A DNA stretch of 64,000 nucleotides from positions 41,401 through 105,400 of the forward strand of contig JBBHKE010000629.1 in assembly GCA_037447655.1 (NCBI GenBank), written 5' to 3'. Shown here piece by piece: positions 10,331 through 59,257 of the stretch. Positions within the stretch are counted from its first letter, which is position 1; the number at the start of each line of letters is the position of its first letter. Source of the stretch: Zygnema cylindricum (lineage: Eukaryota > Streptophyta > Zygnematophyceae > Zygnematales > Zygnemataceae). Both the position numbers and the translations under genes were made by a program. The notes beneath the pieces were generated by a model that was given only the letters and a program-made list of their open reading frames with translations, did not search any database and was not told where the DNA came from.

Positions 10331-11375
10331 TGCAATTCTGTGTCCTCCATTGGACTACAGAATACAAGAAGCCTCTAGATAGTTTTTAACTAGCCCACTT
10401 TAACCCACATACACTGCTGCCCAAGTAGTCAAGATGACAATCTCTATGGACCCTTGTGCAGCCTGGACTTCCCTGAGTCCGTAGGAAAAAGAATCTCTGA
10501 AAACGCCCAACCAGGCGATAAGTTATAAGCCGCCAAAAAATGCCAATTTTATACAAACTCTCAAAGAGAGAGGTGACTACCTAATTTTTCCTAAGTCCTA
10601 GTTTTTCCTAGTTCTCTCTCACAACCCCTATGTACTACACGTACGAACCAATCAGAACAGTGTCTAGTACCAAAAAGTACTACTGCCGATGTACTTTCTG
10701 TACGGCCTCTGTACGACAAGGCCATTAGGTGGACGCGTGTCTATTTTCCACTCGTCCGTACGTTCCTCGGAATTCCCGCGACCAAATGTCATCTCTCCAC
10801 GTGGCGCCAGGTCATGCCACGTCACTAAATGCCAAAGTGACCATTCCGGGATTTCGGCGATGATGTGCGCTGTTAGATTTGACGCGAAATAAAATCTGAG
10901 CCGTAATAAATACTTGCGAAATATTTGTTTCGCTGTCGAAACAAAATGCACAATATCCGTTTCAATTTAGTACAGTACTTCGCATTTCGTAAAACTGTAT
11001 CTATGCGTGTCGTAAAGAGTTTCTATTAAATGATTTATGCATTATACAATAGTTTAAATATTAATGAAACCCTATATCTCCTAACGGACTTATACGACAG
11101 ACTGGTTAGAGCTAACGGCTACGCCACGCTCTGCCGGTCGGGGGTTCGAGTCCTGCCGGACTCAACCTTTTGTTGAGAGTGACTTAAAGTCACTCTTTAG
11201 TCCTTCCTATGGAGCTGAGGCAGCCATGGCTCCATCGCTCTCTCTCTCCTTCAGTGACTACAACAAGTATGGGGGTAAGAGAGAAGAGATGGAGGCAGGC
11301 TGCCTACATTTTCTTTATATATTTTTCCACTAATTAATTTAGACTAAGAAAATACAAAAACTACTTATTTCAACA
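10331..11375 (-). repeat. Copia A 3' LTR, 1,045 bp
   Basis: In element sense it starts TGTTGAAATAAG directly after AAGGGGAG and ends GAATTGCA. Modules in element sense: U3 start, GCCATGGCTGCC block, antisense tRNA-like module, CCACGTGG block, GTAC cluster, CCAAT-type box, TATAAAA-type box, and an R/U5 block with a GACTC...GAGTC-type hairpin. Confidence 0.92.
11084..11166 (+). other. tRNA-like module (box A and box B), antisense within the A LTR
   Basis: On the plus strand the stretch contains GACTGGTTAGAGC, resembling box A, and GGTTCGAGTCC, an exact box B, about 40 bp apart. The T-arm is nearly paired. The acceptor stem is not, so this is tRNA-derived rather than a working tRNA. It recurs at 16449-16532 and 33964-34049. 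Confidence 0.7.
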
Positions 11376-11397
11376 CTCCCCTTATTTTCTAGTCTAA
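11339..11397 (-). promoter_or_regulatory. Inverted repeat bracketing the copia A PPT/U3 junction
   Basis: TTAGACTAAGAAAATA (11339-11354) pairs with TATTTTCTAGTCTAA (11383-11397) apart from one bulge. The loop holds the PPT AGGGGAG and the first bases of U3 (TGTTG). The stop codon of pol lies in the 5' arm. Confidence 0.75.
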
Positions 11398-12250
11398 TTT
11401 TAACTTTTTTCTTAATCCACATTTTTCCCTACAATATTTTAACTTTGGAGAGGGCACAGGTTTGGTCATCATGTTAGCCACCATTTCCTCATCTGATCTA
11501 TATACAAGATTCACTATTTTATTCTCCACTTTTTCTCTTACAAAACTTAATCTTATGTCCATATGTTTAGCCTTAAAATGGTGTTTTGGATTGGCTGCAA
11601 TTGCTATGGCCGCTTGATTATCGCAAAACACTTCATGCACTCCCTCCTTCATATACCCTAATTCTTGCAGCAAGGATTTGACCCACATCAACTCTTTCAC
11701 AGCAGAACAAGAGGCCATGTACTCAGCCTCCATAGTGGACTGAGCAACCACCTTTTGTTGCTTATTGCTCCAACAGCAAGCACCTTCCCCAACATACAAC
11801 ACATACCTAGAAGTGCATCGTCTCATAGGTGCGTCCCCATAACTGGCGTCACTCCAAGTAGTGATGTCAGTGTGCTCCCCTCCCAAATGCAACCATAATT
11901 CTCTAGTTCCCACCAGATATCTCATGACTCTCTTGGTTGCCTCCCAATCTCTCTTTCTAGGATCATTAAGACTCCTACTGAGTACTCCAACTGCTGCCGC
12001 TATGTCCGGTCTGGTACAGTTCATAAAATAGATTAAACTTCCTACTACCTGTCTATAAGCGATAGACTTCATAAACTCTCTCTCCTCTGACTCATCTGAT
12101 CGTCTTAGATCATCACACCTCGTTCTACACTCCCATCACTTATTTTTTTCAAGTCCATGGGAGTAGTACAACTGTTAGCATTTTCCATCTGGAATTTCTC
12201 AAACATATTTCCTATTGTTTCTTTATGAGTAAGTCTGATGATCTTCTTCC
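11389..12250 (-). pseudogene. Copia A RNase H and RT C-terminus
   Basis: This is the C-terminus of the copia polyprotein. Minus-strand text runs through the connection YRQVVGSLIYFMNCTRPDIA and RNase H motifs: SDASYGDAPMRRCTSRYVLY, a core containing STMEAEYMA, EVFCDNQAAIAIAANPKHH, and the tail DMMTKPVPSPKL-like. RNase H degrades the RNA strand during reverse transcription. The frame 11389-12072 is open. The segment 12073-12250 is in another frame because of a deletion near 12260-12270. The stop codon overlaps the PPT hairpin. Confidence 0.88.
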
Positions 12251-19496: not shown

Positions 19497-20278
19497 TGAT
19501 ACTTAGTCTCCATTGAGTTTTTTTAACTCAAAACACAATCACTTAGATCTTATACTTAACTCATAAATCAACCAAAGTTTCACACACAAACTCTGATAAG
19601 ACCCAAACTATCACTCATACAAAGAGGGCCATAAAGGACACTTTTCTTCCTTTGTGAACTCATACAAGTTATCCTACCTTTCACTAAGTCCTAATTTATA
19701 CTAATAGATCTCATTAACTATCAAAGTGACTAATAGAACGTTGTGTAGTACAATATCGTATTATCCTACTTCTACCTTTTGTACTAGGCTACGACAACAC
19801 AAATTTGTCCCCGTAAGTTTCTTATCTACACTGTACACACTAAAACTTAATTCGAATAGGACATGTTGTACTCTCGTGGAAACATTCCACCGACATCTTA
19901 CCTTTCCGTAATGTAATACGTGTATTTTTTTGATTGTGCAAGTGGTCCCATATTCGTACTCTTCCAATAAGGTTTATTGTTGGTGATCACCTAAACTGTA
20001 CTATAGGATATGCAAATCTCTTCAACGAATACCTGACATTGTTAATTCTATTTCAATATTCAGGGTTCTTCGCTTTGTGTATGTATCGTCGGATGATAAT
20101 CTAACATCTTCAATTTGCTAGTATGTGAAACTTCTTTTCTAAATTAATGTCCTTTTGACATGTGTCAGATTGCCATACTAAATTCAGTACATTTAGAACT
20201 TAGACATTCAAAATTATTTCTAAGTCTAAAAGTCTCTCTTACTCCGTGTTTTGAGAGACCGGAGTTTATAAAACAACA
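19497..20278 (-). repeat. B/C-family LTR, 782 bp, shared by copia B and copia C
   Basis: In element sense it begins TGTTGTTTTATAAACTCC after a PPT and ends CTAAGTATCA next to B's gag. Copia C's RNase H ends just to its right, so one LTR serves as C's 3' LTR and B's 5' LTR. Confidence 0.82.
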
Positions 20279-20302
20279 CTCCCTTTAAACTTTGGTCTCT
20301 CA
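20252..20302 (-). promoter_or_regulatory. Inverted repeat bracketing the copia C PPT/U3 junction
   Basis: The 17-nt arms at 20252-20268 and 20286-20302 (TGAGAGACC...GTTTA type) pair with only two or three mismatches. The loop contains AAGGGAG|TGTTG. Confidence 0.8.
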
Positions 20303-23941: not shown

Positions 23942-24256
23942 ATGGCGGAAGCGATGGAGGGCGCTAAAGACAATGGATGGATAATGGACACGGGAGCATC
24001 GGCCCACATGTGCTGGAACAAGGCAGTTTTAAGAAATCTGAAATCAGCACCAGAGAAAAATATCTACTATGCATGTGGAATGAGTGTGCAAACGCGGGCT
24101 GTAGGTGATGTCTCCTTGCTAGTTGATGTAGAGGGGAAGGTTGTTGAGAGAACTCTTCATAATGTTCTTTATATCACTGATTTTAAGAAATATTTGTTCT
24201 CAACTTCTTTGGTAGAAAGTAAAGGGTTTGAGGTCAATCGGGAGGCAGGTTGTTAG
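23942..24256 (+). pseudogene. Copia D aspartic protease
   Basis: The text WIMDTGASAHMC contains the catalytic DTGA triad of retroviral-type aspartic proteases, and a later VLYITDFKKYLFSTSLV strand matches the family's C-terminal half. The enzyme would dimerise and cut the Gag-Pol polyprotein. The domain is in the same frame as gag (separated by a TGA at 23882), then shifts relative to integrase near 24240. Confidence 0.85.
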
Positions 24257-25505
24257 CAAAAATGGGAAAATTGCAATTACGGGAACTAGAGATGCCAGCA
24301 AAATGTATCGAATGGATATGCCCGATAATAAAGAAAATGATGTTTTATATTCCGGTGTATTATCCTCAAATGAGCTGTGGCATAAAAGGTTAGGCCATGT
24401 GAATTATGATAGTATGAAAAAGATGGTCAATGCTGGTAAAATAGAAGAAGTCACTGTGTCAAACCAGTCACCTAAAACGTGTGATGGATGTGCACTAGGA
24501 AAAATACACAGATTACCGTTTCCTCAAGAGTCTGAACATAGGTCTACTAAACTTTTGCAACTCATTCATTCTGATGTTTTCGGTCCTACAAAGATACCAT
24601 CTGCACGGGGGATGAAATATATGGTTACGTTTACAGATGATTTTTCGAGGTTTACTAAAATCTACTTCATGAAAGAAAAGAGTGAAGTCTTCACTCATTT
24701 TCAACACTACAAAGCGTGGGCGGAGAAACTACACGGTCTACCAATTTTGGAGCTTAGATCAGACAATGGCGGGGAATATATGTCAAAAGAATTTGAAAAC
24801 TTCTTACTCAAGGAAGGTATAAGTCATAAATTGACTGTCCCATACTCTCCGGAACAAAATGGGGTCTCAGAAAGACTAAATAGAACTATCACAGAAAGCT
24901 CTAGGTCTATGCTTGTGGATAAGGACGTAGATCCGAAATTCTGGGCTGAAGCATTAAATTATGCAGTTTATATAAAAAATAGGATAGGTTCAAGATCAGT
25001 AGATACCACTCCTTATGAGATCTTGACGGGTAGAAAACTGGATGTCATTCACTTCAAAGTCCTTGGAAGTAAATGCTTTATCTTGGATACGTCTAATGAT
25101 AAAAGGAAATTTGAACCTAAGGGATTGCCGGGCATTTTTCTAGGATATGATGAACACTCTAAAGGTTATAAAGTGTTTGTTTTTGAGAGACAAAAAATCA
25201 TTGTAGCAAGGAACATCGTTGTCAAAGATGAACTAGACTCGATAAACTTATTTAAAATGATAGAGCAACAGAAGCAGCAAAAAGTACAAGAATATGTCAT
25301 TTTAGATAGCATCCATTATATTGTCCCACAGATGCAAAATTCACCAGTGGTACCACCGGAGTCGGAACATAATTGGGTTCCACAACAAGTTTGTTTCGAA
25401 GCGCAACAACAGCAGTTAGTGCCTACAGATCGCAACCAGCGCAACAAGCGCAACCCACTGGAACCGACAATTTCAGCCTCAAAATTTCCGGGGAAGAAGA
25501 TCTAG
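24228..25505 (+). pseudogene. Copia D integrase (longest open frame in the window)
   Basis: A 425-codon open stretch. The zinc module has His52 and His57 (WHKRLGHV) and Cys85 and Cys88 (CDGCALGK). The DDE triad is Asp116 (HSDVFGP), Asp179 (RSDNGGEY) and Glu215 (NGVSERLN); the 35-residue Asp-Glu spacing is canonical. The C-terminal half carries IFLGYDEHSKGYKVF. All catalytic residues are present, so this domain looks biochemically intact even though frameshifts on both sides separate it from protease and RT. Confidence 0.93.
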
Positions 25506-26676
25506 TAGCCGCCTGCAAGCAAGTTTTCACTTTGCCTACTCGGCAGCCTTAGGTGAGCCTCTAACCATCCGGGAAGCCTTCTCATCACCGGAGCAGAATC
25601 ACTGGATCGAGGCGGCAAACGATGAAATGAAATCGATCATGTAGGCTCAAACATGGGAGCTTGTGGACCTTCCTCCGGATCGAAAAGCGATCGGCAGCAA
25701 ATGGGTATTCAAGGTGAAGTTAAATCCAGATAATACCATTGAACGATACAAGGCTAGACTTGTGGCAAAGGGTTATAATCAAAAGGAAGGAATTGACTTT
25801 GAAGAAACATTTTCTCTTGTTGTAAGATTTTCGACAGTTAGGATTTTGTTATCTCTACCTGCTATAGAAGATATGGAAATACATCAGATGGATGTAAAGA
25901 CGGCCTTTTTGCAGGAAGAACTAGAGGAGACCATTTACACGCAGCAGCCTGAAATGTATGCAGAACCAGGAAAAAAACACTTAGTATGCAAACTGCTAAA
26001 ATCATTGTACAGCTTAAAACAGGCCCCGAGGCAATGGAATCTAAAACTTGATGAATTCTTAACTGGTCTAGGCTTTAAAAGGATAAGCTCTGATCACTCT
26101 GTCTATGTTTTACACGGTGAGGATGGAAAAGTATATATAGCGGTATACGTAGATGATCTACTATTAGTCAGCAAATCAATGGCTGAAATTAAAAAAATTA
26201 AAATTGCTTTGAAATCACTGTTCGAGATGAAAGACCTCGCTGAGGAAAAATGTATTTTGGGTGTTCAGGTAGAGAGGGACATGAAAAACAGATTAATAAA
26301 ATTGACTCAAAAAGAGGCTATTGGAAACATGTTAGATGAATATGGAATGCGGGGAGCAAAAGGATGTGTAACACCAATGGAGTTTCGGCATAGGTTAGAT
26401 GGGGAAGAAACAGAACCGGGTGTTATTCTCAGTGAAATTTTTGAGTCAGGGGAGGATGATCCTATGACACTGATACCTTACAGAAAGATAGTGGGAAGTT
26501 TAATTTATTTCATGAACTGTACCCGTCCGGATGTTGCTGCAGCACTTGGGGTACTAAGCAAAAGTCTACAGAATCCGAGGAAATATGACCGTGATGCAGC
26601 AAAAAGTGTTTTAAGATACTTGGCAGGAACCAAAGACCTCAAACTCACACTAGGCGGAGGAGAAGTGAAGCTGTAA
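25506..26676 (+). pseudogene. Copia D reverse transcriptase
   Basis: After a frameshift and a TAG (about 25641), the open frame 25663-26676 (337 codons) carries [29 protein letters not shown] (catalytic Asp77), SLYSLKQAPRQWN and YVDDLLL (residues 162-168). The usual KDLGEAKYILG reads KDLAEEKCILG, so some drift is visible. The connection SLIYFMNCTRPDVAAALGVLS leads to RNase H. A TAA at 26674-26676 ends the open stretch within LTLGGGEVKL. Confidence 0.92.
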
Positions 26677-27132: not shown

Positions 27133-27277
27133 CTGAGTTGCTTCACTGCTATACTGCTATGCTGCTTTAGTCCAATAACGAGGATATAATGGGACTACGT
27201 GACTTGCTAAATTGATTCGTTGCTATGCTGCGATGCTCCGCTCGTTCGACATCGCAGCTACGCTGGCATACTGAGTC

Positions 27278-27313
27278 TAAAGCTTAAGGGGAGTGTTGTT
27301 TTGGAAAGCTTTA
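27278..27313 (+). promoter_or_regulatory. PPT and inverted repeat at the copia D PPT/U3 junction
   Basis: TAAAGCTT (27278-27285) and AAGCTTTA (27306-27313) are exact inverses around AAGGGGAG|TGTTG. The PPT primes plus-strand DNA synthesis. Confidence 0.75.
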
Positions 27314-28189
27314 AATCTTAGCAAATTTATAGGACGGCCGAAAAATAGATCTATATGGACACGTGTCGTCACTTGAATCATAGTGCAGGTTTTTGAATAG
27401 TACCGACAACGCAGCTGCGAGGCAGATGGAACAAGCGCAGCTGCGGTTATTTTTATGGTCTGTACGGACGAACGCAGCATGCGACGCAACGGGTCAAACG
27501 CAACTGCATATGTTTTGGTACATGACAACGCAGTTGCTACGCAACAAGACAAACGCAGTTGCGGCTAACTTTTGTATGTGATAACGCAGCTGCTACGAAG
27601 CTGCGGATATTTGAATATAATCAAGAATTGGACTGGGCTACTGCCGTTGATCTGAATCAATTGAACGAGATTCACTTAGCCAGGCGACAAGTATTTGATC
27701 AAATCACCTGTATAGGATTCTCAGTCATATTGAATGTACAGTGATAGATTAGTTCTTAGCGTAAGTAGGAGCACTTAGACCTTACTGGCAGTTTAGTCCT
27801 TTTGGATGTATCGTTTTGGAACACTTGTATCGGCGGTACAACACTTTGTAGTAGGACAACTGAGGGAAGAGTATAAGACTTAGGACGTAGAATATTTTAT
27901 GCATCCAGACTTCCAGATTGTGTAATCTGCAGACTGTTTTTGGGAAACCTGTGAGTTGCATATCTTGGTGTATGTTGGATCAATTGAGCTGAAACTTTGG
28001 GAGTTTTCAGTCTTTGTGATATTCTATACAGTTTACAGTTTGAAGCAGTTTGGTTTATTGTATCAGATTTGGTGAGCTGTAGAAAACAACTGTTTTATAG
28101 GATTCTTGATAAGCTTTTGTGAGTGAGAATATGTCTACTTCCACTACTACTGCTGATGCTCCACCTGCTCCAGTGGATGTAGAACAACA
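27294..28189 (+). repeat. Copia D 3' LTR
   Basis: 896 bp, close to the 5' LTR but with scattered changes and small indels. Ends GAACAACA followed by the duplicated GTGGC. Confidence 0.9.
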
Positions 28190-28584
28190 GTGGCATCATT
28201 CCACCGACATCTTTACTTTCCGTAATGTCATTTTTGTAATTTTATGATTCTACAAGTTGTTTTATATTTTTACTATTCCAATATGGTTTATTGTTGCCGA
28301 TAACTTGAACTGTACTATAGAATCTCTTTAACCAATACTTCACATTATTGATTCTATTTCGGTAATCCGCGTTTTTCACTTTGTGTATAAATCGTCAAAT
28401 GTTAATCTGACGTCTTCAATTTGCTAGTATGCGAACCTTCCTTTCTAAATTAATGTCCTGTTGACATGTGTAGACTCCCATACTTAACTTAGTACATTTA
28501 GAACTTAGATATTCAAAAATATTTCTAAGTTTAAAAGTCTCTCATACTCCAGTGTTCTGAGAGACTGGAGTTTTTAAAACAACA
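28190..28584 (-). repeat. B/C/E-family LTR, right part
   Basis: Continuation of 21869-22129, colinear with 19880-20278. In element sense it starts TGTTGTTTTAAAAACTCC after E's PPT (AAGGGGAG). Confidence 0.85.
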
Positions 28585-28609
28585 CTCCCCTTAAACTTTG
28601 GTCTCTCAG
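28557..28609 (-). promoter_or_regulatory. Inverted repeat bracketing the copia E PPT/U3 junction
   Basis: CTGAGAGAC... (28557-28573) pairs with ...GTCTCTCAG (28593-28609) around the PPT and U3 start. This is the relative of the hairpin at 20252-20302. Confidence 0.78.
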
Positions 28610-35227: not shown

Positions 35228-37654
35228 CGCGGAGTGAAAATGGTGGAGAGTATACTTCTAACGAGTTTGAGGATTTTCTGAGGGAAGACGGAGTTCAACA
35301 CTAAAAGACAGTTCTAGAAAACGCGGAACAGAATGGGGTAGTTGAACGATTAAAAAGAACACTAAGTGATAGTGCTAGAAGTATGTTGTCGGATAGGAGG
35401 ATAGGAAAAAGGTTTTGGGCAGAAGCAATGAACTTTGCTAATTACCTCAAAACTAGAGTTCTTATCTCATCAATAAAAGATCAAACACCTTATGAGAGAT
35501 GGACCGGCCGAAAACCAGACATATCTCACTCAAAGGTTTTCGGCAGTCAAGTATTCAGTCTAGATACAAATCGGTCTAATTGGAAGCTAAATCCTAAAAG
35601 AAAATCGGGATACTTATTAGGATAGGCTGAGGATGTTAAAGGATATAGAGTTTACGATGTAAAAAGGGAAGATATAATCTTAGTAAAACATCTAGGAGTT
35701 ATGGATGAAAGAAAGTCTGTGGATCCTTTCAAATATACAAAGACAGTAAAAATCAGATTTGAGTCAGAAAATTCCGATGACTTTGAGCTTTTTAACTATC
35801 TAGGTTTTAGAGAAGAAGACAATCTTGCAGGTACAAATCAGACCGAAAACGACTCAGCTGCGGAAACTCCAGTGACAACTCTACCCGAAGCGGAAGACAT
35901 GATGGAAATTGATTCGGAATAAAGGGATAGGGGAGAAGCCGATATTGTTCGAAAGAACCCACGAGAACCATCTATTCCGGCCACAGATTTTGAGGGGGGG
36001 AGGAGAAGTAGCAAAAGATTGCAAGAAAAATAGGTTAATACCAAGGTAACAAAACTATCTCATGAAGATGAACCTCAAACTTATAGAGAGGTGATGACTT
36101 GTCTAGAAAGGAACCGGTGGAAGACAACCATCAATGAAGAGATGTCCTCAATTATGGCAGCGGATACTTGGGAGCTGGTGGACTATCCACCTAGCCGAAA
36201 ACCAATCGGTTGTAAGTGGGTTTTCAAATTAAAACTGAACTCGGATAACACCATTGAGCGTTACAAAGCCCAATTAGTGGCAAAAGGATTTACACAGAAA
36301 TAAGGAATCGACTACGAGGAAACCTTTGCCCCGATTGTCAGATTTCCCTCCGTCCGCATACTTCTCAGTCTAGCAGCAGCGGAAGACATGAAGGTGCACC
36401 ACATGGACATCAAGACAGCCTTTTTACATGGTGAATTGGAAGAGGAGATCTTCATGCGACAACCCGAAGGATTTGTGGAGGAACGAGAGGAGAGTAAGGT
36501 ATGCCGGCTGATTTAATCCTTTTACAGTTTGAAACAGGCGTCTCGACAGCGGAATAAGAAACTTGATGAGTTTCTTAACTCTCTGGGATATATGCGGACC
36601 AGCTCAAATCACTCAATCTATGTTTTTCAAGATGAAGAAGGTATTATATTTATTGCAATTTATGTTGATGATTTGCTTGTTTCAAGTAAATCAATGGAAA
36701 AAATTAATAAATTGAAAACCGATCTTAAGGGGATATTTGAAATGAAGTATATGGGGGAAGCAAAATATATATTGGGAATTCAAGTAGAAAAAGAACGAGA
36801 AAGAAAGATTATAAGATTGACTCAAAAGAAAGCAATAGGGAACATGCTGGAAAAAATTCAGATGATAAAGCTAATAGTTGTACAACTCTAATGGAGTTAA
36901 AGAAGGGAAGTGGGGGGAGTGAAGAAGAAGGAGTCATAATCTTATACGAGGAATTAAGTCCTGAAAAACAGAAGTTCATGCAGACTATTCCTTACAGGCA
37001 AGTAGTGGGAAGCCTAATCTATTTTATGAATTGTACCCGGCCGGATTTAGTTGTAGTTGTAAGAGTGCTGAGTAGAAGTCTAAATGCTCCCACTAAGAAC
37101 GATTGGGAGGGAGCTAAGAGAGTCCTTAGATATTTGATAGGAACTAGGGATCTATGATTGCATTTGGGTGGGGAGAATACTGACATCACTACTGGGAGTG
37201 ATGCCAGTTATAATGATGCTCCGATGAGAAGATGTACTTTTGGATATGTATTATATGTTGGTGATGGAGCTTGCTGTTGGAGTAGCAAACAGCAAAAGGT
37301 TATTGCTCAGTCCACCATGGAGGCTGAGTATATGGCCTCTTGCTCTGCTATAAAAGAATTGATTTGGGTCAAATCTTTGCTTGGTGAGCTTGGTAACCTT
37401 AAGAGTGGTGTGCAAATTTTTTTTTGTGATAATCTGGCAGCAATCGCTTTTTTTGCCAATCCTAAACATCATTTTAAAGCTAAACACATGGACATTAGAC
37501 TTACCTTTGTTAGAGAGAACGTAGAAAACAAAATAATCAGTTTAGAGTACCGACCAGATAGTGAGATGGTAGCAGATATGATGACCAAACCTGTGCCTTC
37601 CCCTAAACTAATTTTCTGCAGGGAGAAGTGTGGTCTGAAATTAAAGATTAACTA
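35228..37654 (+). pseudogene. Copia K: integrase, RT and RNase H, 5'-truncated
   Basis: Starts inside integrase at RSENGGEYTSNEFEDF (second catalytic Asp reads SEN, a lost residue) and continues [98 protein letters not shown] and DMMTKPVPSPKL. In-frame stops occur at about 35624, 35920, 36031, 36301, 36514 and 37155, and the frame changes near 36890. Gag, protease and the first part of integrase are gone. It is the clearest plus-strand relative of copia A. Confidence 0.9.
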
Positions 37655-37702
37655 GAAAATAAGGGGAGTGTAGAAATCAATAGTTCTTTTATTATTTTCT
37701 AG
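37652..37702 (+). promoter_or_regulatory. PPT/U3 inverted repeat of copia K
   Basis: CTAGAAAATA (37652-37661) and TATTTTCTAG (37693-37702) are exact inverses enclosing AGGGGAG|TGTAG. The pol stop codon TAG is in the first arm. Confidence 0.78.
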
Positions 37703-42791: not shown

Positions 42792-43970
42792 TGAAATTCT
42801 ATGGGCTCTATTGCCACACAGCATTCGTAGATCCAAAGAAACTAATCTAGATAGTGCCGACTCGAAGTTTATATAAATCCAAATGATTGACCCCTTGACA
42901 ATCATAACCCCATAAGAGCTTCACCCCTGTGAAATAAGACTTTGTGTGTGCTCAGTTCCACCACAGAATGCAAAGTAAAAATATGTGATTTGGACACATT
43001 CACCCACTTTGACTTTCCCTTAGAAATGCAGCCACCAAGTCAGGCCGAAACTCTGACCAACTACACCCCTGTGTAGCGTAGACTCCCTTGAGTCCGCGGC
43101 AAAAAGAATCACTAAAAATGACCAAGTAAATAAATTGTTATGGCTGGCCAAAGTTTGCCTTTTATACAAAGTGCTCTGTGGGAGAGGCAGCTACCTACCA
43201 AAAATGTTCTAAGTCCTAAAACCCCTCTCTAAACCCCTTCTACTAAAGTAAGCCGCCAATCAGAGGACTTTACCGTACAGAAAAGTACAAGCGCTAGAGT
43301 ACTCTTTGTACGGCAATTGTACGACATGACCATACAGGTGACAACTGTCACATCCAAACTTGTTATCTTGCGTTCCACAAATTCTGCAATCCTCTAGCGC
43401 ATTTCCACGTGTCATCCGGAGTGGCGGGGCCAGAAAACGCCAAGGCGGCCATTTCGAAATCTCGGCTCGCACCACGGCTGTCGATTAAATCCACCATTCA
43501 ATTCTACCCGTCGAAAATATTTGCGCAGTATTTGTTTCGTCGTCAAAACAAATGGGCGGTATTAGTTTCGTGAGGTATCGTAAACCGTACTACTCTAAAC
43601 TGTATCTATGTACTAAGAATCTATTCGCGCCGTTAAATGAATTCAAGACGCGTACATGTTTATATAAGTATCAAACCCTACATGTCCTAGCACTAGTCCT
43701 AGACTTAACGGATAACGCTAACGGCTATGGTTTGTGTGACGGACGGTAGGTACCAGGATCAAATCTTAGGTTTGTCAAGTACCTTTTAGTAAATATATCA
43801 TTATCTACTCTTGTCTCCTTTGAGAGCTTAAGCAGCCATGGCTCTAACTCCCTTTCCAGCCTTCAGTGGCTACAACAAGTGTGGGGGCTTAGAGAAGGGA
43901 GTCAGAGGCAAGCTGCCTCTGCTATTTTCCTATCCTAAATTAAGACCTAGAAAATACTCAAATATCAGCA
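42792..43970 (-). repeat. H-family LTR (3' LTR of copia N), 1,179 bp
   Basis: TG...CA-type ends, shares all modules with the LTR at 45850. The tRNA-like remnant is at about 43701-43775. In element sense it starts TGCTGATATTTG after AAGGGGAG. Confidence 0.85.
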
Positions 43971-43990
43971 CTCCCCTTATTTTCTAGTCT
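43944..43990 (-). promoter_or_regulatory. PPT/U3 inverted repeat of copia N
   Basis: AGACCTAGAAAATA and TATTTTCTAGTCT bracket the PPT and U3 start, as in copia A and K. Confidence 0.72.
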
Positions 43991-45887
43991 TTTTCCTTTT
44001 ACTTCTTACAAACAAATAAACAAACATTCCCTTCCCCTTTTCCTTTTCCTCTTCTTTTTCCTTTTCCTTTCATAAAACTTTAATACAACACCCTCATATT
44101 TAGTAAGGTCTATTAAATGAGCTCAAGAAAACATTCTATCTAGTTGATCATACTTTTTATTTAGCATCCCACTTTTCATAAATCCGAGCAAAGATATTAT
44201 CCACCTCCTCTCTTTTCCCTCCACACAAAAACTGATTTCCCTCTTGCAATTCAACCAGCCAGCCGCATCTCCATTCTGCAACACACACCTAGATGCTATC
44301 CCATTTACAGGCACACTTTCATAAATGGCATCACTCCCATTAGTGATGTCAAAGCAATAACCCCCCAAACTTATCATTAAATCAAGAGTCCCCACTAAGT
44401 TCCTCATAAAACCTACATCTTGCGTACTCATAGTTTTGTTCATGATACTCACCCCATTTTCTAAAATTCCTCACTCTCTCCCATGGAATTCTTTCCACTA
44501 TCACTTTCTGACTTAATTCCCAATAAATATTTCTCCTCTCCCTTATCTTTTAAAGCCCTCTCTAGTTTTACTGCTCCCCTTTCTTTGGAATCCGTTGGAA
44601 TCCGTTGAAGTCTCCCTATCCGACCAAATTTTTGTTTCCAACATATCTATAAAATTATCCTCATTACTTCTAACTCCCTCAAGTACCTCCCTCCCTTAAC
44701 TTCCCTTTTACCTCCAAAAGCAAACTATTGCTTTCGTAGAATTTCCGTGTACTTTTCTCTCTTCTCCATTCTACCGATGTGAAAAAGCTCCAAAATTTCA
44801 TCATCCTCTTTCTCCTCTTCCCCTTCTTCCTCCTCAGTTACATACCAACTTCTAAGTTCTTCCAAACAAGGAAACTCCTCCATATAGTGACCCATTTCCT
44901 ACAAGCGAATCAAACCCCTTTTTTCAAAGTTCCCCTTTCTTTTCTTCTCCCTCTCTTTCCACCAAAGTTCCGATAATGTTTACCTTTGTCTTTCTTCCTC
45001 TCATCACGTTTCTGCTCATCACCGCCGTTCCTCACATCACACTTCCGCCTGTTACCACCAGCTATAAATGCAGTCCCCCTGTCACATCCCCTACGAAGCT
45101 CCAAAGTGCTTTCCCTCACAAGAATTATCCCCATGGTAATGCTCCAAGTCCACGAGGAGACATCCATTCCTTGCATACGTTAAATGATGTTTTCGTACTT
45201 ATCTGGGAGCTTCATGATTAGTGTATTAATCTTCCTCTCCTCAGATTCTACATATCCCCCACTAGCAAGTTGAACATATAACGCAGCAATATTATTGCAA
45301 AACTCTATCATGCTATTGCCTTTATCAACATAGGCCTCTATTTGTTGTTTTACTAACTGTTGCCTCTGTATAGTCTCACTCTTATAAATCTAAATTAGTG
45401 CTTCCCATATCTCTGAAAACTTCTTTAAGTTTATAAAAGTGATAGATATGGATTTAGACAGGTTTCTAAGTATGAGATGCTTTGCTATAGTGTTTTTGTA
45501 TTCCCATATTTTTTTGTCATTTTCTTCTGTTTTTATCCCTGCTAGTGGTATTATAGGTGAGAGCCTAGCTCCCCTCACCATGTGTCCCTTTTTCCTTCTC
45601 CCCTATTTCTCTATCCACGACAAGGTTTTTCCCTTCACCTTCCTTTACATCTGAACTCCGGTTGATATACTGGGTAGCCTCGAATGATTCTCCATATTAA
45701 GCTCCTCCAAAGCCAGGTGGCGGACATCTCACTTGTCCCAAAACAATTCCTCATAAGTGTTTCTCCAAAAGCAATCCCTCAATTGTAAACTCCCAATAAG
45801 TGAAGTCTGTTCCATTAGTATATGCACCCTAGATGGTGGGCCCAAAACTTGAAATCTATGGGCTCCATTGCCACACAGTATTCGCAT
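43971..45887 (-). pseudogene. Copia N: deletion derivative with RNase H and gag remnants
   Basis: Only about 1.9 kb lies between the LTRs. The left part (44123-44460) holds a degenerate RNase H (FMRNLVGTLDLMISLGG, SDAIYESVPVNGIASRCVLQ). From 44700 to 45887 are a knuckle-less gag and basic linker (44910-45176). RT, integrase and protease are deleted. The gag frame starts at ATG 45885-45887 within the 5' LTR (MRILCGNGAHRF) and crosses the PBS as QVLGPPSRVHI; Met of VMGP is Leu here. It could have moved only with help from another copy. Confidence 0.8.
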
Positions 45888-49178: not shown

Positions 49179-50193
49179 TGCAATTCTGTGTCCTCCATTG
49201 GACTACAGAATACAGGAAGCCTCCAAATAGTATTTAACTAACCCACTTTAAGCCACGACCACTGCTGCCCAAGAAGGCAAACTGACAATTTGACTACACC
49301 CCTGTGCAGCCTGGACTATCTGAGTTCGTAGAAAAAAGAATCACTGAAAACGGCCAACCAGCCGATAAGTTATGAGGCACCAAAAATACCAATTTGTACA
49401 AACTCTCAAAGGGAGAGGTGACTACCTACCAAAATTTTATAAGTCTTGATTCCTTCTAATAACTTATATCTACTGAAGTACGGACCAATCAAATTACTGT
49501 ACCGTACCAAAAAGTACTACTGCCGGTGTACCTTTTCTACGGTCTATGTACGACAAGGCTATTAAGTGGACACGTGTTTGCTTTTTATTTGTCCGTACAT
49601 TCCTCGGAATTCCTATGACCGAATGTCATCTCTCCACGTGGCTCCAGGTCATGCCACGTCACAAAACGCCAAGGTGACCACTCCGGGATTTTGGCGATGA
49701 CGTGCGCCGTCGGATTCGTAATGAGACGTAATCTTAACCGTTATAATTACTTGCGAGATATTTGTTTCGCTGTCAAACAAATGCGAGGTATTCATTCTAA
49801 AATGATGTCGTACTAAAATTGTATTTATACACGCCGTATCTAGTTTTAGTTAAATGGATTTCTTACTTCCTAAATGTATATATATCTATCATACTCTATA
49901 GCACTTAGCATTGGTCCTAGTTTAGTAAGATAAAGCTGACCGCTATCGGCCAACTTGACGAACTCCAGGTTCCGGGTTCAACCCGGGTCCGTCAAGACTA
50001 TTTTTAGTAACTTTCTAAAAATAACTGCCTGTTGAACTAAGGCAGCCATAGATCAACCACCTTCTCTATCCTTTAGTGACTACGACAAGTATCGGGGCTA
50101 GAGAAAGGAGGTGGAGGCAGGCTGTCTATCCTTTTTCTTTTTCCTAATATATTTAAACCTAGAAAATACAATAGAAATCTATGAATTTCAACA
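49179..50193 (-). repeat. Copia G 3' LTR (A-related), 1,015 bp
   Basis: TGCAATTCTG...TTTCAACA, A-family module order with many substitutions. The tRNA-like module at about 49918-50000 has an unusually well paired T-arm around GGGTTCAACCC. Confidence 0.88.
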
Positions 50194-50216
50194 CTCCCCT
50201 TATTTTCTAGTCTAAT
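50158..50216 (-). promoter_or_regulatory. PPT/U3 inverted repeat of copia G
   Basis: CCTAGAAAATA (50158-50168) and TATTTTCTAG (50201-50210) enclose the PPT and the first 25 bp of U3. Confidence 0.75.
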
Positions 50217-52182: not shown

Positions 52183-53490
52183 TGTTGTTTTTGAAGATTT
52201 AGTTTCGTGCGTACATGAAATTTGGTGCGCACGCGACGTTTCGTGCGAATATATTTTACATGATGTACTGTGGAGTTTTGAATAGATTTACGATTCGGGG
52301 GAGTTAGTGTACTAGCAAAATTAAAGTGACGTGTGAGTGGCGCGAACAAACATTTGAAAATGTATGGCGGATCGCGAAGCGATCCGATATGAAATATGAA
52401 TTGTTTGAAACGTACGAAGTACAAATGAAGTGACGCGAAGAAGCGTACGAAAAACAGAATGCGACAAGCTAAAATATTACGTCGCACGTACAAAACAGTT
52501 TGCAACAGGCGCATTTATTGCAAACGACGTATATTCAGTACCGAAAAGATTTAGAAGGTACGGATTAATTTTCGGCAGTAGTTCGAGGTACACGTGGAGG
52601 GCGGACGGCGTCCGCCGATATTTTCAAGAGATCGTATTGTTTGATGACGTGTTATTAAGTGGACCTTACATATGCGATGTCGGTTCACTACATGGACTTA
52701 TCGACAAGTGACTAAGCAAGTTGTCACTTATGACGCGGATTTGTGGATGCGTCGGTGTAAATATTTGGAGTATTATTGTTTTGTCTTTTACATCATTATA
52801 AATTAGTGTTGATTATGATGTTTATATTTAAGTGATCAATTAGGGTTTTGATAGTTTAATTTGTGTGTGTACGATGTTGTACTTGTAGACAAGTGTACGC
52901 TTAAGATTGCTTGACTCTCAGGTGTACGCTTACGATTAGTTTACTCTTACTAAAAGGTTATTATGCGTAAATAGGATTTAGTGACAATTACGTAATTTAC
53001 TTTGGTTATTTTGACACTTAGTGATTCATTGACTGCTCACAAGTATATATATAGGAATGAGCTTTGTTAGAAATTAATCATCAATGCTGGTTAGTAAAGT
53101 GGGGACCGAAGATGTAGACTTTTAGGGTTGCCGATTAGGTCATGCATTTGAGTAATAGGTTTATTGATATACTTTTGTTTATCTAATGTTTATGTGAGAT
53201 TGCACTCTTTTTGTTATTATTTATTTATGTTATTTTATGTTTGTTTGATATGCATTATTTATGCATTTGTCCTAGGGTTTGCTTATGTTGATTATTCCAT
53301 CAAACCTTAGATGTTGTCATAGGGTTTATTTATGTTGATTATTCCATGAAACCCTAAATGTTGTTTGTTGCGTCTGTGTACGCATATAGAGGATGCATTT
53401 CAAATGATTGTTCGTCGACCTATTTTTGCTTAGCTTTTTGCATGATAGTTTGGGTCGCTTCTGCGGTCTATTTTAGACCAAAGAACAACA
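52183..53490 (+). repeat. T 5' LTR, 1,308 bp
   Basis: TGTTG...AACAACA. Contains a perfect 7-bp-stem hairpin GGATCGCGAAGCGATCC at about 52367-52383 and an ATG-less open frame at 52409-52711. Confidence 0.92.
52409..52711 (+). other. ATG-less open frame of about 100 codons in the T LTR
   Basis: The frame is open from the codon after a TGA at 52406-52408 to a TGA at 52709-52711. It reads like ordinary protein (VARTKQFATGAFIANDVYSV, RYGLIFGSSSRYTW, EIVLFDDVLLSGPYICDVG) but has no ATG. The copy in LTR2 (to 54949) differs by one His/Arg change. I recognise no family. It could be a spliced exon, a captured host fragment or chance. Confidence 0.4.
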
Positions 53491-53505
53491 GGTTATGGGC
53501 CCACA
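53491..53505 (+). promoter_or_regulatory. T PBS
   Basis: GGTTATGGGCCCACA directly after LTR1, 14 of 15 bases complementary to the initiator tRNA-Met anticodon arm. Confidence 0.87.
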
Positions 53506-54395
53506 CCCCATCTATCATATGTTAGGTTAAGTCGAGATAGGTTTGTGTCACACGCATTGTAGCGGGTTTATTTTGTTCTTGCAGGTTGTATTGCAGTAAT
53601 GGTGTCTGTGTACCCATGAGATCGGCCTTATCATAGTGTTGGTATGTGCCGAGTTTAATCTTGCATCGCCCCAAGGGTTAACTTAGTGACAGTGCCGAAA
53701 TGTCTACCCTCAATGAAAATGATTTATTTTGAGAAATGATATTTTATTTTTTGAAAAATACATGTTTATTTTTGATGAAGCATTTCGAAATGTGGAGATT
53801 TGACATTTAGTGGAGAGATGTGGAACGAGGAGTTTCGACGTTTGGGGGAGAGAGATCCGAAAGGTGGAGTTATGACATGTGGTGTAGAGATCCAATTTTT
53901 GTGGATCGATGATTGTTGAAAATTGGATTTGTAATGTAGATTTTGAGTTGTTGGAAATTTTTGGGAAATGTGACATTATTAGAATTGTTTTTGGGAAAAT
54001 AGATTTTAACTTATGTATTTTTAATGGGAAATTTTCAGATTTAATTATTAAATGAAGAGAAAAATATTGAAATCTATATTTGTTTTAGTTAAGGTAGAAG
54101 TTATTTAAGTGGGGATATTTTGTTAGTGTGATCTTTTGGCTTTAATTATTTAGTTGATTTGTGATAGCATTTTAGGAATGTAGATCCGGATTTAGATATT
54201 GGAATGAATTATTTTGTTGTAATCGGAAAATGAAAAATATATATATTATGTATTATAAAATCTGGATGGTATGTGGAGGAAGCGGAAGCGATGGTGGAAC
54301 AAGTGGGAAAATTCTGGCGGAGGAATTTGGTGGATTTAGATGGAGGAGACATCAGGAGGTGACAGTGTGACAGCTGATGACGTGGCATAATGGAT
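53506..54395 (+). other. T internal region, non-coding
   Basis: AT-rich with a run of loosely repeated GTGGAGATTTGACATTT / GTGGAACGAGGAGTTTCGACGTTT / GGTGGAGTTATGACATGTGG units at about 53790-53890. No coding signature. Confidence 0.65.
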
Positions 54396-54448
54396 GCACA
54401 AAACTAAATTTTCGGGGGAGTGTTGTTTTTGAAGATTTAGTTTCGTGC
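54396..54448 (+). promoter_or_regulatory. PPT/U3 inverted repeat of T
   Basis: GCACAAAACTAAAT (54396-54409) pairs with ATTTAGTTTCGTGC (54435-54448) at 13 of 14 positions. The loop holds CGGGGGAG|TGTTG. Confidence 0.82.
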
Positions 54449-55728
54449 GTACATGAAATTTGGTGCGCACGCGACGTTTCGTGCGAATATATTTTACATG
54501 ATGTACTGTGGAGTTTTGAATAGATTTACGATTCGGGGGAGTTAGTGTACTAGCAAAATTAAAGTGACGTGTGAGTGGCGCGAACAAACATTTGAAAATG
54601 TATGGCGGATCGCGAAGCGATCCGATATGAAATATGAATTGTTTGAAACGTACGAAGTACAAATGAAGTGACGCGAAGAAGCGTACGAAAAACAGAATGC
54701 GACAAGCTAAAATATTACGTCGCACGTACAAAACAGTTTGCAACAGGCGCATTTATTGCAAACGACGTATATTCAGTACCGAAAAGATTTAGAAGGTACG
54801 GATTAATTTTCGGCAGTAGTTCGAGGTACACGTGGAGGGCGGACGGCGTCCGCCGATATTTTCAAGAGATCGTATTGTTTGATGACGTGTTATTAAGTGG
54901 ACCTTACATATGCGATGTCGGTTCACTACGTGGACTTATCGACAAGTGACTAAGCAAGTTGTCACTTATGACGCGGATTTGTGGATGCGTCGGTGTAAAT
55001 ATTTGGAGTATTATTGTTTTGTCTTTTACATCATTATAAATTAGTGTTGATTATGATGTTTATATTTAAGTGATCAATTAGGGTTTTGATAGTTTAATTT
55101 GTGTGTGTACGATGTTGTACTTGTAGACAAGTGTACGCTTAAGATTGCTTGACTCTCAGGTGTACGCTTACGATTAGTTTACTCTTACTAAAAGGTTATT
55201 ATGCGTAAATAGGATTTAGTGAAAGTTACGTAATTTACTTTGGTTATTTTGACACTTAGTGATTCATTGACAGCTCACAAGTATATATATAGGAATGAGC
55301 TTTGTTAGAAATTAATCATCAATGCTGGTTAGTAAAGTGGGGACCGAAGATGTAGACTTTTAGGGTTGCCGATTAGGTCATGCATTTGAGTAATATGTTT
55401 ATTGATATACTTTTGTTTATCTAATGTTTATGTGAGATTGCACTCTTTTTGTTATTATTTATTTATGTTATTTTATGTTTGTTTGATATGCATTATTTAT
55501 GCATTTGTCCTAGGGTTTGCTTATGTTGATTATTCCATCAAACCTTAGATGTTGTCATAGGGTTTATTTATGTTGATTATTCCATGAAACCCTAAATGTT
55601 GTTTGTTGCGTCTGTGTACGCATATGGAGGATGCATTTCAAATGATTGTTCGTCGACCTATTTTTGCTTAGCTTTTTGCATGATAGTTTGGGTCGCTTCT
55701 GCGGTCTATTTTAGACCAAAGAACAACA
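54421..55728 (+). repeat. T 3' LTR, 1,308 bp
   Basis: Same length as LTR1. The few differences include CATGG/CGTGG (52691 against 54929), GACAATTACG/GAAAGTTACG and TAGAGG/TGGAGG. Confidence 0.92.
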
Positions 55729-57943: not shown

Positions 57944-58133
57944 GTAACAATGTCAACACCCTAAAAATCCGGGGGTATGTTTCACGTCTACATTCATAGG
58001 CGGCCGTACACACTAATTTACTCAAAGATAACTATTCGAGTAGATACTAAAAATCCACACTAAATATAGCTAATATTGAATAGTTGGTGGTCCAAAAATA
58101 TTTGACGTCCTAGACTCTAATTTCTAAGACGTA

Positions 58134-58170
58134 CTAAAGCTTAATTTTCAATACTCCCCTTAAGCTTTAG
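58134..58170 (-). promoter_or_regulatory. PPT/U3 inverted repeat of copia F
   Basis: CTAAAGCTTAA (58134-58144) and TTAAGCTTTAG (58160-58170) are exact inverses enclosing the PPT GGGGAG and U3 start. Confidence 0.8.
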
Positions 58171-59257
58171 AAGACTTACTCACTTAAACCACATGCTTTT
58201 ATGTAGTACTCAAACTTAAGAGCTAGAAAGTAAGCCAAAGATTTCTGGTCCCAACAAGATATCTTAAGAAAATTTTTATTGCCTCCTAGTCTCTCGTTCG
58301 TGGATTTTGCAAACTTTTGCTCAATACACCAACAGTTGCAGCTATATCACGCCTAGTGCAATTCATAAAGTAAATCAAACCTCTTACTACTTGTCTGTAG
58401 GGTACTTGGGACGTAAAATTTTGCACTTCGGCACTGAGTTCCTTGTCTATTATGACTCCAAACTCATGCTCCATTCCTTCAAGTTTCTGCTTATACTCCA
58501 TAGGAGTTTGGCATCAGCCAATCCAAATTTATCCAATATGTTTCCTATCGTTTTTTTTTTTAGTTTGCCTAATGATTTTCTTTTCTCTATCTCTTTCAAC
58601 ATGTATTCCAAGGATATATTTTACCTCACCCAAATCCTTCATTTCAAATTGTGAATTAAGAGCATGTTTTATTCTAGCAATTCTTTCTTTGTTCCTACTG
58701 ATTAGGAGCAAATCATCAACATACACAACAATGAATATCACCTTATTCAAATTATCACCACCCACCAAATATAATGAATTATCAGAGCTAATTCTAGTAA
58801 ATCCTAACCCTGTCAAGAACTCATGTAACTTTCTTTTCCACTGACGTTGAGCCTGCTTTAAGCCATACAAAGATTTTAAAAGCGTGCACACAAGATTTTC
58901 TTTTCCTGCTTCCTCATGACCCTCAGGCTGCTTCATATAATTGACCTCATTTAAATCACCATGCAAAAAGGCAGCTTTGACATCCATTTGGTGGATGTCA
59001 AAATCCTATATGGCAGCCAATGTAAGTAAGATGCTGACAGATGGAAACTTTACAACAGGTGAAAAAGTTTCTTCATTATCTATCCCCTCTTTTTGATTAT
59101 ACCCTTTAGCAACACAGCGAGCCTTATACATGTCTATAGTATTATCTGGGTTAAATTTTAATTTAAACACCCATTTACTTCGAATAGCCTTTCTTCTAGG
59201 AGGAAGTTCCACCAGATCCCATGTTTGGGCCTCCATAATGGACTTTTTTTTCTTCAT
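58154..59257 (-). pseudogene. Copia F reverse transcriptase, with RNase H core deleted
   Basis: Minus-strand frames 59006-59257 (KWVFKLKFNPDNTIDMYKAR, EGIDNEETFSPVVKF) and 58529-58987 (MDVKAAFLHGDL, SLYGLKQAQRQW, YVDDLLLIS, MKDLGEVKYILGI) give a full RT active site. The connection FMNCTRRDIAATVGVLSKSL follows at 58286-58390. RNase H then jumps from LRYLVGTRN directly to LALKFEYYIKACGLSE: its catalytic centre is deleted. This copy could not have completed reverse transcription alone. Confidence 0.88.

What the first reader, a model, noticed from the sequence alone, without database searches (positions are those of the whole stretch)
54396..54448. Inverted repeat enclosing the PPT/U3 junction, conserved in position but not sequence across copia families
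In T, 13 of 14 bases pair around CGGGGGAG|TGTTG. The same geometry is found in A (11339-11397), K (37652-37702), G (50158-50210), N (43944-43990), D (27278-27313), C (20252-20302), E (28557-28609) and F (58134-58170). A, G, K and N share one stem sequence; C and E, D and F, and T use different ones. The paired arms differ between families yet stay complementary, as compensatory change would produce. One arm lies in the internal region and the other in U3, so LTR copying cannot create the match. A stem-loop presenting the PPT and U3 start could control plus-strand priming, RNase H cutting, RNA stability or 3' integrase-end recognition.
Basis: partly seen in the sequence, partly recalled or inferred. 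Interest (0 to 1): 0.9.

Follow-up and report, generated by a model that had tools for sequence, protein, structure and literature searches.

The report
Inverted repeat around copia plus-strand primer
Copia-type jumping genes in this genome carry two short matching arms on either side of the site where the second DNA strand starts; the pairing is real and kept by matched mutations, but this kind of arrangement was already described in copia elements in 2010.

Summary
The nine PPT|U3 junctions recognised in the window carry an inverted repeat: left arm ending 0-2 nt before the PPT, right arm starting at U3+10 to +26. All nine score >=9; 1 of 85 other (G/A)GGGAG sites does; eight 5'/solo LTR starts are at chance. 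In the host genome GGGGAGTGTTG occurs 6,570 times, its reverse 179 times. Of 213 distinct sampled sites 180 have the stem, against 70 of 2,520 shuffles. Divergent families pair with their own partner better than with swapped ones (0 of 2,000 permutations); one position shows all four Watson-Crick pairs. Compensatory change is supported between families and in the T clade, weakly in the A clade. The element with the most alike LTRs, T, has the best stem. The structure is known: Bousios et al. 2010 (PMC2829016) described it in Sireviruses and almost half of classic Ty1/copia elements, with similar dimensions, and proposed a role in PPT primer formation. Added here: genome-scale counts, controls, covariation. 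No G.U excess was found, so RNA versus minus-strand DNA stays open.

The parts
54390..54413 (+). T: left arm, in the internal region, ending 1 nt before GGGGAG (directly before the run GGGGGAG)
54415..54420 (+). T: polypurine tract GGGGAG (run GGGGGAG from 54414), directly followed by the TG of U3 at 54421
54431..54454 (+). T: right arm, inside U3 of the 3' LTR (LTRs 52183-53490 and 54421-55728, 99.5% identical)
11332..11405 (-). A: left arm 11383-11405 (holds the stop codon of the open frame 11389-12135), PPT 11376-11381, right arm 11332-11354
50153..50215 (-). G: left arm 50201-50215, PPT 50194-50199, right arm 50153-50168
43942..43991 (-). N: left arm 43978-43991, PPT 43971-43976, right arm 43942-43956
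37652..37702 (+). K: left arm 37652-37662, PPT 37663-37668, right arm 37692-37702
27271..27321 (+). D: left arm 27271-27285, PPT 27288-27293, right arm 27306-27321; downstream of integrase and reverse transcriptase frames 24216-26676
58125..58178 (-). F: left arm 58160-58178, PPT 58154-58159, right arm 58125-58144; U3 begins TATTG
20252..20302 (-). C: left arm 20286-20302, PPT 20279-20284 (AGGGAG), right arm 20252-20268
28557..28609 (-). E: left arm 28593-28609, PPT 28585-28590, right arm 28557-28573

Best explanation
This is the PPT/3'LTR inverted repeat of Ty1/copia elements. Shown here: the arms exist, the left one abuts the PPT while the right one lies at a variable distance inside U3, they are found where internal region and U3 meet at a PPT and not at the control sites tested, and they change together between families. 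Inferred: the pairing helps to select the PPT as the plus-strand primer. The anatomy fits a step of reverse transcription: the arms fold back on each other (in the RNA before copying, or in the minus-strand DNA once RNase H has cut the RNA), leaving the PPT next to the stem. The stem would clear RNA fragments from the flanks and mark the 5' border of the primer, while the loop leaves room for extension into U3. Whether RNA or minus-strand DNA is the selected form is not decided. The 0.6 is for a role in plus-strand priming; that this is the known inverted repeat is about 0.97.
For: Moving the left edge upstream of the PPT lowers the pairing to background: mean 11.6 at the PPT, 9.1 at 4 nt, 7.6 at 8, 5.2 at 16 (120 of 241 junctions). 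Within the 0-3 nt that the score allows, the left arm ends 0 (83), 1 (135) or 2 (16) nt before the PPT in the 234 of 241 junctions with a symmetric score >=7. Chance level at 8 of 8 5'/solo LTR starts and 84 of 85 other purine tracts below 9. Own arms 10.2 against swapped 5.6 among 16 representatives under 60% similar, 12 of 16 own and 19 of 240 swapped at >=9. One D-type position: C-G 27, G-C 12, A-T 6, T-A 1 (element E), 2 mispairs; two further junctions not placed. T clade: 5 double Watson-Crick changes against 0 or 1 in six slid controls. The published proposal is the same (PMC2829016 section 18).
Against: No functional test exists here. The PPT acts as primer while hybridised to DNA, so an RNA hairpin cannot be present at that moment; a passage of PMC3616985 starts the same objection for HIV/SIV (cut off in mid-sentence). 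Covariation in the A clade is weak: 1 double Watson-Crick change against 0, 0, 0 and 1 in four slid controls, beside 41 changes to other mispairs, 17 to G.U and 14 to A.C. 33 of 213 sampled sites score below 9. In the T clade 55 changes break a pair on the tree. Inside tight clusters of the first set own and swapped arms hardly differ (10.56 against 10.35).
Confidence: 0.6

Rival explanations
1. The stem acts in the genomic RNA and not in priming itself: as a stable 3' element for RNA stability, packaging or 3'-end formation, or by slowing reverse transcriptase before the PPT.
For: Both arms are together in the genomic RNA only at the 3' junction. Predicted RNA energies of the nine window junctions are -10.7 to -24.0 kcal/mol in the sense strand, lower than for the reverse complement in 7 of 9 (RNA parameters for both).
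Against: No excess of G.U over A.C (38 against 46 in 109 stems at a 0.9 similarity cutoff; gains on internal branches 12 against 9, on tips 25 against 33, T and A clades). C and E fold better as reverse complement. It does not explain why the left arm abuts the PPT.
Confidence: 0.2
2. It is a double-stranded DNA signal: a palindromic protein-binding site at the 3' LTR, or an integrase-end recognition structure.
For: Equal tolerance of G.U and A.C is what a double-stranded repeat would show.
Against: Arm spacing varies (right arm start 5-95% range U3+10 to +27) and arm sequence differs between families, which does not suit a protein site. By the established LTR replication scheme the left arm is absent from the U3 end of linear cDNA.
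Confidence: 0.12
3. By-product: the left arm is fixed by the end of pol or by the primer region and the right arm matches by ancestry or chance.
For: In A the stop codon of the last long frame lies in the left arm (that it is the end of pol is recalled, the frame had no Pfam match). In the A clade the stem is conserved more than covarying.
Against: Coding explains one arm only. Shuffles, purine-tract controls and swapped arms do not give it. T has no frame of 150 aa in its internal region yet has the best stem.
Confidence: 0.03

Closest known systems
PPT/3'LTR inverted repeat of classic Ty1/copia elements (Bousios et al. 2010, PMC2829016; abstract, passages and sections 8, 16, 18, 24 read)
   Same: Left arm borders the PPT, right arm inside the 3' LTR, loop holds PPT and U3 start. 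Published means: 19 bp, 88.6% identity, right arm from 18 bp inside the LTR. Here: 17.4 positions, 86.9% Watson-Crick, U3+15 (234 of 241 junctions).
   Different: Here in 180 of 213 sampled sites of one genome instead of almost half of a set of elements; covariation counted; also in the short element T.
PPT/3'LTR inverted repeat of Sireviruses (same paper)
   Same: Same position relative to the terminal PPT.
   Different: Sirevirus arms average 28 bp and AT stands between PPT and TG; in the nine window junctions U3 follows the PPT directly.
PPT structure in HIV-1/SIV RNA (PMC3616985, passages only)
   Same: Base pairing at the PPT.
   Different: In the passages seen, part of the PPT itself is paired; flanking arms of this kind are not mentioned there.

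Membership tests
Ty1/copia (Pseudoviridae) LTR element | Integrase before reverse transcriptase, RVT_2 type | tested here: met
   Element D: gag_pre-integrs, rve and SH3 in 24216-25502, RVT_2 in 25645-26673. Not tested for each of the nine; T has no long frame in its internal region and is linked by its junction only.
PPT/3'LTR inverted repeat of Ty1/copia | Left arm borders the PPT; right arm inside the 3' LTR | tested here: met
   Nine of nine window junctions
PPT/3'LTR inverted repeat of Ty1/copia | Absent from purine tracts other than the terminal PPT | tested here: met
   1 of 85 other (G/A)GGGAG sites in the window at >=9
PPT/3'LTR inverted repeat of Ty1/copia | Role in PPT primer formation | not testable with these tools
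   Proposed, not shown, in PMC2829016 section 18
Sirevirus | AGGGGGAG, then AT, then TG | tested here: not met
   U3 (TG, or TA in F) follows the PPT directly in the nine window junctions. The genome motifs were chosen with direct TG, so they say nothing about Sireviruses elsewhere in the genome.
Sirevirus | Several identical PPT copies upstream of the 3' LTR | not tested
   -

The most novel reading that the evidence does not exclude
The pairing is selected in the minus-strand cDNA, not in the RNA: after RNase H cutting, a DNA hairpin displaces the flanking RNA pieces and stacks against the short PPT RNA, so that a 6-8 nt purine tract can serve as the only primer.
Probability: 0.25. Interest if true: 0.6.

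Novelty: new member of a known kind. Interest (0 to 1): 0.36.

Why it matters
How reverse transcriptases pick a very short polypurine tract as plus-strand primer is an old question. A structure kept by compensatory change at a motif found thousands of times in one genome supplies natural variants with which the 2010 proposal can be tested, and the lack of a G.U preference raises the question of whether DNA or RNA is the folded form.

Tried and rejected
A loose local pairing score without the anchor at the PPT was too noisy (D, G and N reached by 47, 40 and 64 of 300 shuffles; F was mis-placed there) and was replaced by the anchored score. A scan of viral contigs with the reverse transcriptase of D gave 13 pattern matches and no confirmed relative. 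The G.U/A.C test was meant to decide between RNA and minus-strand DNA and did not. Host: no RuBisCO large-subunit match in the assembly; for an HSP70-family frame the named organisms among the 120 listed proteins are land plants at 65-76% identity and the best hit, unnamed, has 81%, so a green-lineage host is likely but none closer is named. Literature searches listed no paper whose title or abstract start reports covariation of this repeat; the library holds open PMC papers only, and most listed papers were not opened.

Rows left out: first pattern, 92 of 100 listed sites fetched, 88 distinct; second, 94 of 100, 86 distinct; third, 40 of 100, 39 distinct. The lists are the first places in contig order, not a random draw. 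The score allows the left arm to end at most 3 nt before the PPT; stems elsewhere are not seen by it. Junctions with other purine tracts than (G/A)GGGAG-like ones were not looked for.

Full report
What is there. The window holds many nested Ty1/copia pieces. At each, an inverted repeat has its left arm in the internal region, ending 0-2 nt before the tract, and its right arm inside U3 (coordinates). Junctions with other kinds of tract would have been missed.

More than chance. With a score anchored at the tract, the nine reach 9.0-17.0, where shuffles of the same letters average 4.6-6.4; 0 to 24 of 1,000 shuffles reach the observed score. Eight U3 starts that I take for 5' or solo LTRs, with LTR sequence inside but no PPT outside, score 3.0-7.0, at chance. 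Of 85 other (G/A)GGGAG sites in the window 1 reaches 9 (10.5). Left arms paired with U3 positions 61-120 give 1 of 100. In the nine-by-nine swap, four cells between groups also reach 9.5-10, and the own partner is best in 5 of 9 rows.

Genome scale. In the 352.8 Mb assembly the motif GGGGAGTGTTG, split by its upstream letters, occurs 3,618 + 927 + 2,025 times; the reversed motif 18 + 63 + 98 times. Sites taken in contig order have the stem (score >=9) in 75 of 88, 70 of 86 and 35 of 39 distinct cases; shuffles in 38 of 880, 18 of 860 and 14 of 780. Some low scorers look like no junction at all (for example L182, a purine-rich stretch), but I did not remove them. Of 22 distinct T-type places printed (the window's included), 21 keep a T-type stem by eye; L025 has another sequence as U3, and L020 did not match the motif and was not examined.

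Compensatory change. With 16 representatives under 60% similar, own pairs average 10.2 and swapped pairs 5.6; 0 of 2,000 permutations reach the own mean, also at five other cutoffs; the own partner is the best of all in 11 of 16 (17 of 111 at the loosest cutoff, where close relatives share stems). In the D-type group one stem position is C-G in 27, G-C in 12, A-T in 6, T-A in 1 (element E, placed with two mismatches), mispaired in 2; two related junctions could not be placed. In the T clade (64 sequences) 975 of 1,147 cells are Watson-Crick and 39 G.U, against 216-371 Watson-Crick for partners slid by 1-3 columns, and a tree from the flanks gives 5 double Watson-Crick changes against 0 or 1 (6 with slightly different flanks). 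In the A clade (75 sequences) the stem is conserved and covariation weak, 1 against 0, 0, 0 and 1. Breaking changes are many in both clades, as expected of dead copies.

Age. T (LTRs 99.5% identical) scores 17.0, A (96.6%) 13.5, D (92.7%) 9.0, F (LTR pieces at 80-94%) 11.5. T has the highest LTR identity of the pairs. Four elements are too few for a trend.

RNA or DNA. If the structure worked as RNA alone, G.U should be tolerated more than A.C. With symmetric scoring there are 38 G.U and 46 A.C in 109 stems at a similarity cutoff of 0.9 (67 and 78 in 177 stems without a cutoff). Gains on internal branches of the two clade trees are 12 G.U and 9 A.C, on tips 25 and 33. This does not decide, and gives no support to RNA alone. 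Predicted energies favour the sense strand in 7 of 9 window junctions (RNA parameters for both strands).

Known or new. Bousios et al. 2010 (PMC2829016; abstract, passages and sections 8, 16, 18 and 24 read) describe a precisely positioned inverted repeat around the PPT/3'LTR junction in all but three of their Sireviruses and almost half of classic Ty1/copia elements, its left arm bordering the PPT. For classic elements they give 19 bp, 88.6% identity and a right arm from 18 bp inside the LTR; here the means are 17.4 positions, 86.9% and 15 (234 of 241 junctions). They propose that it exposes the PPT to RNase H. Benachenhou et al. 2013 (PMC3601003, passages) repeat this and call for a systematic search. 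The window junctions fail the Sirevirus attachment-site test. So these are new members of a known kind, with counts, controls and covariation that I did not see in the parts of those papers that I read.

Mechanism. Shown: position, restriction to the junction against the controls tested, co-change. Inferred: a role in choosing the PPT as primer. The fixed left border and loose right border suit a stem that marks the 5' end of the primer and leaves room for extension. An RNA stem must be melted when the hybrid forms, so a fold in the minus-strand DNA after RNase H cutting is a serious alternative; I give it 0.25.

Noticed in passing
G000 contigs C339 (184557-191617), C2031 (233227-238179), C2185 (53443-56005): T-type junctions recur head to tail with a step of about 2.2 kb, close to one LTR plus one internal region. 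They may come from recombination between LTRs or from circles.
   Followed up: no
window 52183-55728: T is a short element (LTRs of 1,308 bases, internal region 930 bases) with no stop-to-stop frame of 150 aa in its internal region, probably non-autonomous.
   Followed up: partly
window 58153 and 62571, - strand: The two LTRs taken for element F both begin TATTG instead of TGTTG, so the change may predate the insertion.
   Followed up: no
window 54535-54541: A second GGGGGAG tract lies inside the U3 of T.
   Followed up: no
L169 (G000:C127:1190-1540): A GGGGAGTGTTG site with arms unlike the other families seen (score 13.0, right arm from U3+5). It may be a different kind of element.
   Followed up: no
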